Source: Corynebacterium atypicum (GTDB lineage: Bacteria > Actinomycetota > Actinomycetes > Mycobacteriales > Mycobacteriaceae). Taken from it: a stretch of DNA of 64,000 nucleotides. The position numbers and the translations under genes are program-made. Positions 35,976-36,746 of the stretch are shown here, in pieces; the stretch's first letter is position 1, and each line of letters starts with the position of its first letter. The stretch is taken from assembly GCF_000732945.1 (NCBI RefSeq), contig NZ_CP008944.1, forward strand, positions 900,553-964,552, written 5' to 3'. Under the pieces are notes generated by a model. The model searched no databases. It was given only the letters and a program-made list of their open reading frames with translations, and was not told where the DNA came from.

Positions 35976-36746
35976 TTAGAGCTTGCGCATTACCGATACG
36001 ACCTTGCCCATGATCTCCGCTTCATTGCCGGGGATCGGTTCAAAGGCGTCGTTGTGCGGGAGCAACCACACTCCGGACGAGTCGCGATGGAACTCCTTTA
36101 CCGTGGCCTCGCCGTCAATGAGTGCCGCCACAAACTCGTTTTCTTCCGCAACCGGCTGCGAGCGGACCACGATCCAATCGCCGTCGAGAATCCCGGCGTC
36201 GCGCATCGACTCTCCCGAGACCTTGAGGAGGAAGAGCTCGCCGCCGCCCACGACGTCCGTGGGCAGCGGGAAGTAGTCGTCGATGTTCTCCTCTGCCAAG
36301 ATGGGCGTTCTGGCGGCGATCTGGCCCAGAATTGGCACGACCGAGGTGCGCACGTCTTGCTCGGCGCTTGTCGCCTTCGGTGCGGCGGCGCGCTTGTCGC
36401 GTTGTGTGCCCGGCAAGTGACGCACGTCGACGGCCCGAGGCTTGTTGGGGTCGCGGCGCAAGAACCCCTTCTTTTCGAGCGCCTTGAGCTGGTAAGCCAC
36501 CGATGACGTCGACTGAAGTCCGGCCGCGTCTCCGATTTCTCGGATGCTCGGCGGGTAGCCGCGCAGTACGACCGCGTCGCGAATCACCTCCAGGATGCGC
36601 TGCTGGCGCGGTGACAGCGAGGCGGGATCTGTAGCGGAAGATCTCTTGGTCTTCTTCTTGGGTTTCTTAGCCTTGCTCGCCTGCTCCTTGGCTGCGGTTG
36701 GTTGCGGTTGCGCGTTGTCGGTATCTGACTTCGGATCGGTGGCCAT
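35976..36746 (-). CDS. lexA: SOS repressor LexA with altered cleavage site
   Basis: LexA represses DNA-damage genes and is removed by RecA-stimulated self-cleavage. The 256-aa product has a Lys-rich N-terminal extension, a winged helix (44-108, SIREIGDAAGLQSTSSVAYQ), and an S24 domain with catalytic Ser180 in VSGESM and Lys217 in EATVKEF. The cleavage bond, Ala-Gly in the family (E. coli VAAGEP), reads IAARTP here: Arg146, codon AGA at 36309-36311, one G-to-A change from GGA. The known E. coli G85D change at this place makes LexA uncleavable. ATG 36746 has the ribosome site AGAGGGG. Confidence 0.95.
   Translation of the reverse strand: MATDPKSDTDNAQPQPTAAKEQASKAKKPKKKTKRSSATDPASLSPRQQRILEVIRDAVVLRGYPPSIREIGDAAGLQSTSSVAYQLKALEKKGFLRRDPNKPRAVDVRHLPGTQRDKRAAAPKATSAEQDVRTSVVPILGQIAARTPILAEENIDDYFPLPTDVVGGGELFLLKVSGESMRDAGILDGDWIVVRSQPVAEENEFVAALIDGEATVKEFHRDSSGVWLLPHNDAFEPIPGNEAEIMGKVVSVMRKL

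What the first reader, a model, noticed from the sequence alone, without database searches (positions are those of the whole stretch)
36305..36315. LexA has Arg instead of Gly at its autocleavage bond
The conserved segment reads V-P-I-L-G-Q-I-A-A-R-T-P where LexA proteins have A-A-G-x-P; cleavage falls between Ala and Gly. The codon is AGA (minus strand, 36309-36311), one G-to-A step from GGA and a rare codon here. The E. coli lexA3 change (G85D) at the same residue gives an uncleavable repressor. The catalytic Ser180 and Lys217 are intact. As read, the strain would be unable to induce its SOS genes. The neighbouring SOS-controlled gene is also broken, which would fit a strain that has lost SOS. 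A base-calling error is the main alternative, because other genes here carry lesions.
Basis: partly seen in the sequence, partly recalled or inferred. Interest (0 to 1): 0.8.

Follow-up and report, generated by a model that had tools for sequence, protein, structure and literature searches.

The report
Naturally uncleavable-type LexA in Corynebacterium atypicum
The master switch of this bacterium's DNA-damage response carries a real, naturally occurring change at the exact bond it must cut to turn itself off, so the response is probably locked off, and several genes of that response are already broken.

Summary
LexA (window 35976-36746, minus) reads GQIAA-R-TP; the P1' codon at 36309-36311 is AGA. 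Catalytic Ser180 and Lys217 and both domains are intact. A base-calling error is unlikely: a second public LexA, on a 28,450-bp contig and differing elsewhere (S37P), has the same IAARTP. Glycine stands there in 134 of 134 other genus rows (131 of 240 genomes with a match), in 119 of the 120 public proteins listed, and in 75 of 79 distant homologues; the 4 exceptions also lack the catalytic dyad. Gly to Asp at this place blocks SOS in E. coli and Listeria. LexA operators remain at lexA/divS, recA, imuA and imuB; no second S24 protein was found. divS has an in-frame TAG, imuB a frameshift, dnaE2 several; recA, recN, ruvC and dinB are open. Best reading: a natural lexA3-type repressor that keeps SOS repressed, with SOS-only genes decaying. 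Non-cleavage is inferred, not measured.

The parts
35976..36746 (-). lexA, 256 aa, LexA repressor with Arg at P1'
   Evidence: PF01726 residues 43-105, PF00717 residues 138-250
36309..36311 (-). AGA codon, Arg146 at P1' of the autocleavage bond (Gly in 134 of 134 other genus rows read)
36207..36209 (-). codon of catalytic Ser180, intact
   Evidence: position computed from the start codon
36096..36098 (-). codon of catalytic Lys217, intact
   Evidence: position computed from the start codon
36432..36620 (-). LexA DNA-binding domain (residues 43-105), as conserved as in C. frankenforstense
36970..36985 (-). LexA operator TCGTTTACATGTTCGA between lexA and divS, score 18.8 (random 500-bp 95% level 9.3)
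36905..37264 (+). divS-like gene, first part, ended by an in-frame TAG at 37262-37264 before the membrane segment; true start not determined
   Evidence: the name divS is recalled and rests on position between lexA and nrdR and on similarity to the ORF found there in relatives
37274..37786 (+). continuation of the same frame with the membrane segment of divS (the ORF end overlaps nrdR)
15639..16790 (+). recA, intact (G000:C1:916191-917342)
15467..15482 (+). LexA operator TCGAACACATGTCCAT upstream of recA, score 15.3

Best explanation
C. atypicum carries a genuine lexA3-type (Ind-) allele of lexA. The repressor still folds, dimerises and binds its operators, but the bond to be cut is Ala145-Arg146 instead of Ala-Gly. 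The P1' residue sits at a tight-turn position that favours Gly, next to the active site, where a long charged side chain should hinder entry or productive geometry. RecA filaments would still form but could not switch LexA off, so recA, lexA and the imu genes stay at basal, repressed level. Genes useful mainly during SOS (divS, imuB, dnaE2) then decay, while genes with everyday duties (recA, recN, ruvC, dinB) are kept. Shown: the residue, its occurrence in a second sequence, its invariance in the relatives read, the retained dyad, operators and DNA-binding domain, and the broken genes. Inferred: non-cleavage, loss of SOS induction, and the order of events.
For: Arg146 at AGA. Second, non-identical public protein P0002 with the same IAARTP on a 28,450-bp contig. 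P1' Gly with Ser and Lys intact in 134 of 134 other genus rows (131 genomes). Of 79 distant loci, 75 have Ala-Gly (74 with Ser and Lys, 1 with a gap at the Lys column), and the 4 with Ser-Lys/Ser-Arg at the site have lost the catalytic Ser and Lys too, so within this sample Gly goes with the dyad. Gly to Asp at the same residue blocks cleavage and SOS in E. coli and SOS gene activation in Listeria. The residue lies at i+2 of a type II turn, phi +79, psi -24 (PMC10020695 section 3.1). Operators kept at lexA/divS, recA, imuA and imuB. One S24 protein only in both contigs. divS nonsense codon, imuB frameshift and dnaE2 in four pieces over three frames, against recA, recN, ruvC and dinB in one frame.
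Against: No cleavage was measured. The catalytic dyad is still intact, which means either a recent change or continued use. A second IMS-family gene (imuB) is also missing in 4 of 11 relatives, all of which have an Ala-Gly LexA, so mutasome loss does not need this allele. The species has 122 annotated pseudogenes, so three broken SOS genes of eight is only weakly unusual (binomial 0.016; chosen after the fact, and imuB and dnaE2 are not independent). The turn angles come from 1JHF, whose sequence scores 3 bits lower than native E. coli LexA over this very stretch, in line with my recollection that 1JHF is the G85D mutant; if so, a non-Gly residue can take that turn, and the torsion argument is weak. 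ruvC's box (9.1) is just under the random 95% level and recN and dinB show none. Arg at P1' was not among the mutants whose data I could read.
Confidence: 0.7

Rival explanations
1. Arg146 is tolerated: LexA still cleaves, perhaps more slowly or at a neighbouring bond, and SOS is weak but inducible.
For: Dyad intact, C-terminal domain not decaying beyond control proteins, operators kept, allele present in two non-identical sequences. The P1 residue is known to tolerate change: Cys-Gly in Leptospira LexA2 (PMC3789691 passage).
Against: Ala-Gly in 208 of 208 rows that keep both Ser and Lys (134 genus + 74 distant, window left out); Asp at P1' blocks SOS in two species; three SOS genes are broken.
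Confidence: 0.2
2. LexA is switched off in another way or has been re-used: a constitutive repressor tuned by protein level or by another protease, as proposed for some cyanobacterial LexA proteins.
For: LexA DNA-binding domain and operators conserved; Synechocystis LexA has Gly-Gly and Ser to Asp and is thought to have left SOS (PMC3091678 passages).
Against: The retained operators found are in front of ordinary SOS genes; no second S24 protein was found. A genome-wide regulon was not mapped.
Confidence: 0.07
3. Base-calling or assembly error at 36309-36311.
Against: MiSeq 2 x 300, 169 Mb of sequence (PMC4153484) for 2,359,448 bases; a separate contig with a different LexA sequence carries the same Arg.
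Confidence: 0.03

Closest known systems
E. coli lexA3 (G85D) and Listeria lexA G91D, laboratory Ind- alleles (PMC6363387, PMC6872733; passages)
   Same: Substitution of the P1' Gly of the self-cleavage bond, with the rest of the repressor unchanged; SOS is not induced in those mutants.
   Different: Those are laboratory mutants with Asp; this is a natural allele with Arg in a type strain, supported by a second sequence, with non-cleavage not yet measured.
Synechocystis PCC 6803 LexA (PMC3091678 passages)
   Same: A natural LexA whose cleavage bond is altered and which is thought not to cleave.
   Different: There P1 is changed (Gly-Gly) and the catalytic Ser is lost; here P1 Ala, Ser and Lys are kept and only P1' is changed.
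Bacteroidetes MAG LexA homologues L108, L113, L114, L116
   Same: Basic residue (Lys/Arg) at P1'.
   Different: They have Ser at P1 and have lost both catalytic residues; 28-31% identity; function unknown.
Corynebacterium LexA of close relatives (C. frankenforstense: P0004, P0006; G053 by its contig length)
   Same: lexA next to divS and nrdR, DNA-binding domain, dyad and operator.
   Different: Ala-Gly bond and an uninterrupted divS.

Membership tests
LexA repressor | N-terminal LexA DNA-binding domain (PF01726) | tested here: met
   E 4.7e-25, 87.6 bits, cut-off 23.7
LexA repressor | C-terminal S24 peptidase domain (PF00717) | tested here: met
   E 4.9e-31, 107.3 bits, cut-off 23.3
LexA repressor | Ser-Lys catalytic dyad | tested here: met
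   Ser180 and Lys217
LexA repressor | LexA operators at lexA and recA | tested here: met
   scores 18.8 and 15.3 against a random 95% level of 9.3; binding not measured
RecA-cleavable (SOS-inducible) LexA | Ala-Gly (or Cys-Gly) scissile bond | tested here: not met
   Ala145-Arg146
RecA-cleavable (SOS-inducible) LexA | RecA-dependent or alkaline self-cleavage | not testable with these tools
   needs purified protein
lexA3-type uncleavable LexA | P1' Gly replaced, repressor otherwise intact | tested here: met
lexA3-type uncleavable LexA | no cleavage and no SOS induction after DNA damage | not testable with these tools
   needs assay
Synechocystis-type non-cleaving LexA | catalytic Ser lost | tested here: not met
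   Ser180 present

The most novel reading that the evidence does not exclude
A natural bacterial species (or lineage) has fixed a single P1' substitution that turns LexA into a permanent repressor while active site, operators and RecA stay intact, and its SOS-only genes (division inhibitor, ImuB, DnaE2) are decaying: an SOS response caught in the course of being dismantled by locking the repressor on rather than by losing it.
Probability: 0.55. Interest if true: 0.62.

Novelty: new variant of a known kind. Interest (0 to 1): 0.52.

Why it matters
Uncleavable LexA is a standard laboratory tool and a drug-design goal. A wild species with such an allele and an otherwise intact repressor would show that SOS induction can be given up at the cleavage bond itself, offer a natural test of P1' specificity in S24 autoproteases, and predict low SOS mutagenesis and damage tolerance in this clinical isolate. 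My literature searches listed no natural LexA with a changed P1' residue in the titles, abstracts and passages I saw, and none of the held papers mentions both C. atypicum and lexA; most subscription journals are not held.

Tried and rejected
Genome-wide counting of strict SOS boxes was uninformative: CGAACANNTGTTCG has no exact match here, but 212 of 242 genus genomes, this one included, have none, and with 2 mismatches the count is not above the reversed-pattern control (109 against 120). I first read this as box loss; the position-specific scan showed operators kept at lexA/divS, recA, imuA and imuB, so I dropped it. In that scan the matrix was built from boxes picked by similarity to the consensus (at most 4 mismatches), which favours the consensus. 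The recN and dinB upstream regions gave no box here (5.7 and 3.4); in relatives 9 of 11 recN and 5 of 11 dinB regions also scored under 10 and 9.3.

Faster decay of LexA was tested. Over residues 44-256 the mean identity to 127 genus rows is 0.741 against 0.780 for C. frankenforstense, lower in 98% of rows; but for the DNA-binding domain it is 0.919 against 0.920 and for the C-terminal domain 0.755 against 0.781, and RecA, RuvC, RecN and DinB show deficits of 0.014, 0.011, 0.036 and 0.044. So no clear excess in LexA.

N203 looked unique among genus rows but is shared by P0003. The region search around the cleavage site had only 5 candidates, so it says little about rarity. Of 7,990 proteins matched only the best 120 were listed and read. 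A search with a 62-aa stretch of the divS first part found no homologue, so the divS stop could not be checked in a second isolate. One search found an uninterrupted divS ORF in 25 of 30 relatives; of the 5 misses, L006, L025, L027 and L029 show an ORF with a membrane segment, L018 does not. dnaE2 was compared with one relative only (G141); no whole dnaE2 was found in the stretches fetched from G053 and G224. One search misplaced the site in L028, L205 and several distant loci; the alignment replaced it. In one search one recN query (L321) was another, longer ORF and is ignored. One search failed and was rerun as (L265 skipped). The predicted structure came late: mean pLDDT 59.6, residues 113-154 under 50, so it says nothing about the cleavage site and was not used. 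The specificity study of Mo et al. 2014 was not held; what I recall of it is not used as evidence.

Full report
What is there. The minus-strand gene at 35976-36746 encodes a 256-aa LexA with both Pfam domains well over their cut-offs. Its cleavage-site region reads VPILGQIAA-R-TPILAEEN; Arg146 is encoded by AGA at 36309-36311. Ser180 and Lys217 are in place. AGA is used for 9 of 1062 arginines in 28 long ORFs of the window.

Which genome. The window lies in a contig of 2,311,380 bases, the length published for the chromosome of Corynebacterium atypicum DSM 44849; the genome's remaining 48,068 bases (2,359,448 in all) equal the published length of the circular corynephage PhiCATYP2070I (PMC4153484, main text and most of the reference list seen, part 1 of 2). 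That paper reports MiSeq 2 x 300 sequencing with 169 Mb of bases and 122 pseudogenes beside 1,578 protein-coding regions. The identification rests on these lengths.

Is it an error? The public protein P0002, on a contig of 28,450 bases, is 256 aa long, differs from the window's LexA (Pro for Ser at residue 37) and has the same IAARTP. It is therefore a second sequence, not a copy of the window's record; its source is not shown. With the amount of sequence above, an error is unlikely.

How unusual is it? In the genus search 241 of 242 genomes, the window's own included, have a LexA match. Ala-Gly with Ser and Lys stands in 134 of 134. Of the 120 public proteins listed (7,990 matched), 119 have Gly and only P0002 has Arg. 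Of 79 loci from other taxa (without L037), 75 have Ala-Gly. The other four, Bacteroidetes MAGs L108, L113, L114 and L116, have Ser-Lys or Ser-Arg there and have also lost the catalytic Ser (Gly or Ala instead) and Lys (Val in the alignment column, Arg by eye). In this sample, then, the homologues that keep both catalytic residues keep the Gly, 208 of 208, C. atypicum being the exception.

What it should do. In E. coli the same Gly changed to Asp (lexA3) gives a non-cleavable LexA that binds RecA filaments but fails to induce SOS (PMC6363387, passages); the matching Listeria change G91D failed to activate recA and umuD (PMC6872733, passages). In 1JHF the residue at this place is at i+2 of a type II turn with phi +79 and psi -24 (PMC10020695, section 3.1; the table's residue names run against its numbers, so I read it by number). 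This argument is weak: 1JHF scores 3 bits below native E. coli LexA chains over this stretch (93.3 against 96.4), as expected if it is the G85D mutant, which is what I recall; the alignment was not printed. A long charged side chain at P1' is at least as unlike Gly as Asp is. That Arg blocks cleavage is inference.

State of the SOS system. One S24 protein, LexA, was found across both contigs. RecA is intact. With a matrix from 76 boxes of relatives, the lexA/divS box scores 18.8, recA 15.3, imuA 14.0, imuB 14.8 and ruvC 9.1; the 95% level for random 500-bp stretches is 9.3. LexA therefore probably still has its usual main targets, and its DNA-binding domain is as conserved as that of C. frankenforstense. 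Three genes used mainly in SOS (by recalled knowledge) are broken: divS by a TAG at 37262-37264 before its membrane segment, imuB by a change of frame, and dnaE2, which aligns to one relative's protein in four pieces in three frames over L332 5599-8832. recN, ruvC, dinB and recA align to relatives in one frame over most or all of their length. An uninterrupted divS ORF was found in 25 of 30 relatives.

Weight of the decay. Three of eight genes (lexA, divS, recA, recN, ruvC, dinB, imuB, dnaE2) broken against a background of about 7% gives a binomial value of 0.016, but the list was not fixed beforehand, imuB and dnaE2 act together, and a second IMS-family gene is absent in 4 of 11 relatives whose LexA has Ala-Gly. 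The decay fits the locked repressor but does not prove it, and the order of events is unknown.

Compared with what is known. It is a LexA by the domain tests and fails one defining feature of cleavable LexA proteins, the Ala-Gly bond. It resembles lexA3 in kind. A natural non-cleaving LexA has been proposed in Synechocystis (PMC3091678, passages), by a different route. No held paper mentions both C. atypicum and lexA; that library lacks most subscription journals.

Noticed in passing
window 35913-35943: Three homopolymers in a row just downstream of lexA, C11 T10 G10 on the plus strand; as RNA of the lexA strand it folds into a C/G hairpin with an A loop, though the 96-nt stretch folds only 1.2 sd better than shuffles. 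Possible terminator; run lengths may be unreliable in short reads.
   Followed up: partly
G000:C1:511598-514831 (L332 5599-8832): dnaE2 is a multiply frameshifted pseudogene.
   Followed up: yes
G000:C1:506166-507696 (L295 1447-2977): imuB carries a frameshift near its middle, while an ORF for imuA upstream is open and both have LexA-box-like sites upstream.
   Followed up: yes
L108, L113, L114, L116: Bacteroidetes MAG LexA homologues with Ser-Lys/Arg at the cleavage site and no catalytic Ser or Lys: LexA-like repressors that could not self-cleave by the known mechanism; function unknown.
   Followed up: partly
G000:C1:1401251-1401397 (L002): Weak LexA_DNA_bind match in a 254-aa open frame; by eye a winged-helix regulator, and the S24 search found no S24 domain there, so not a second LexA.
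   Followed up: partly
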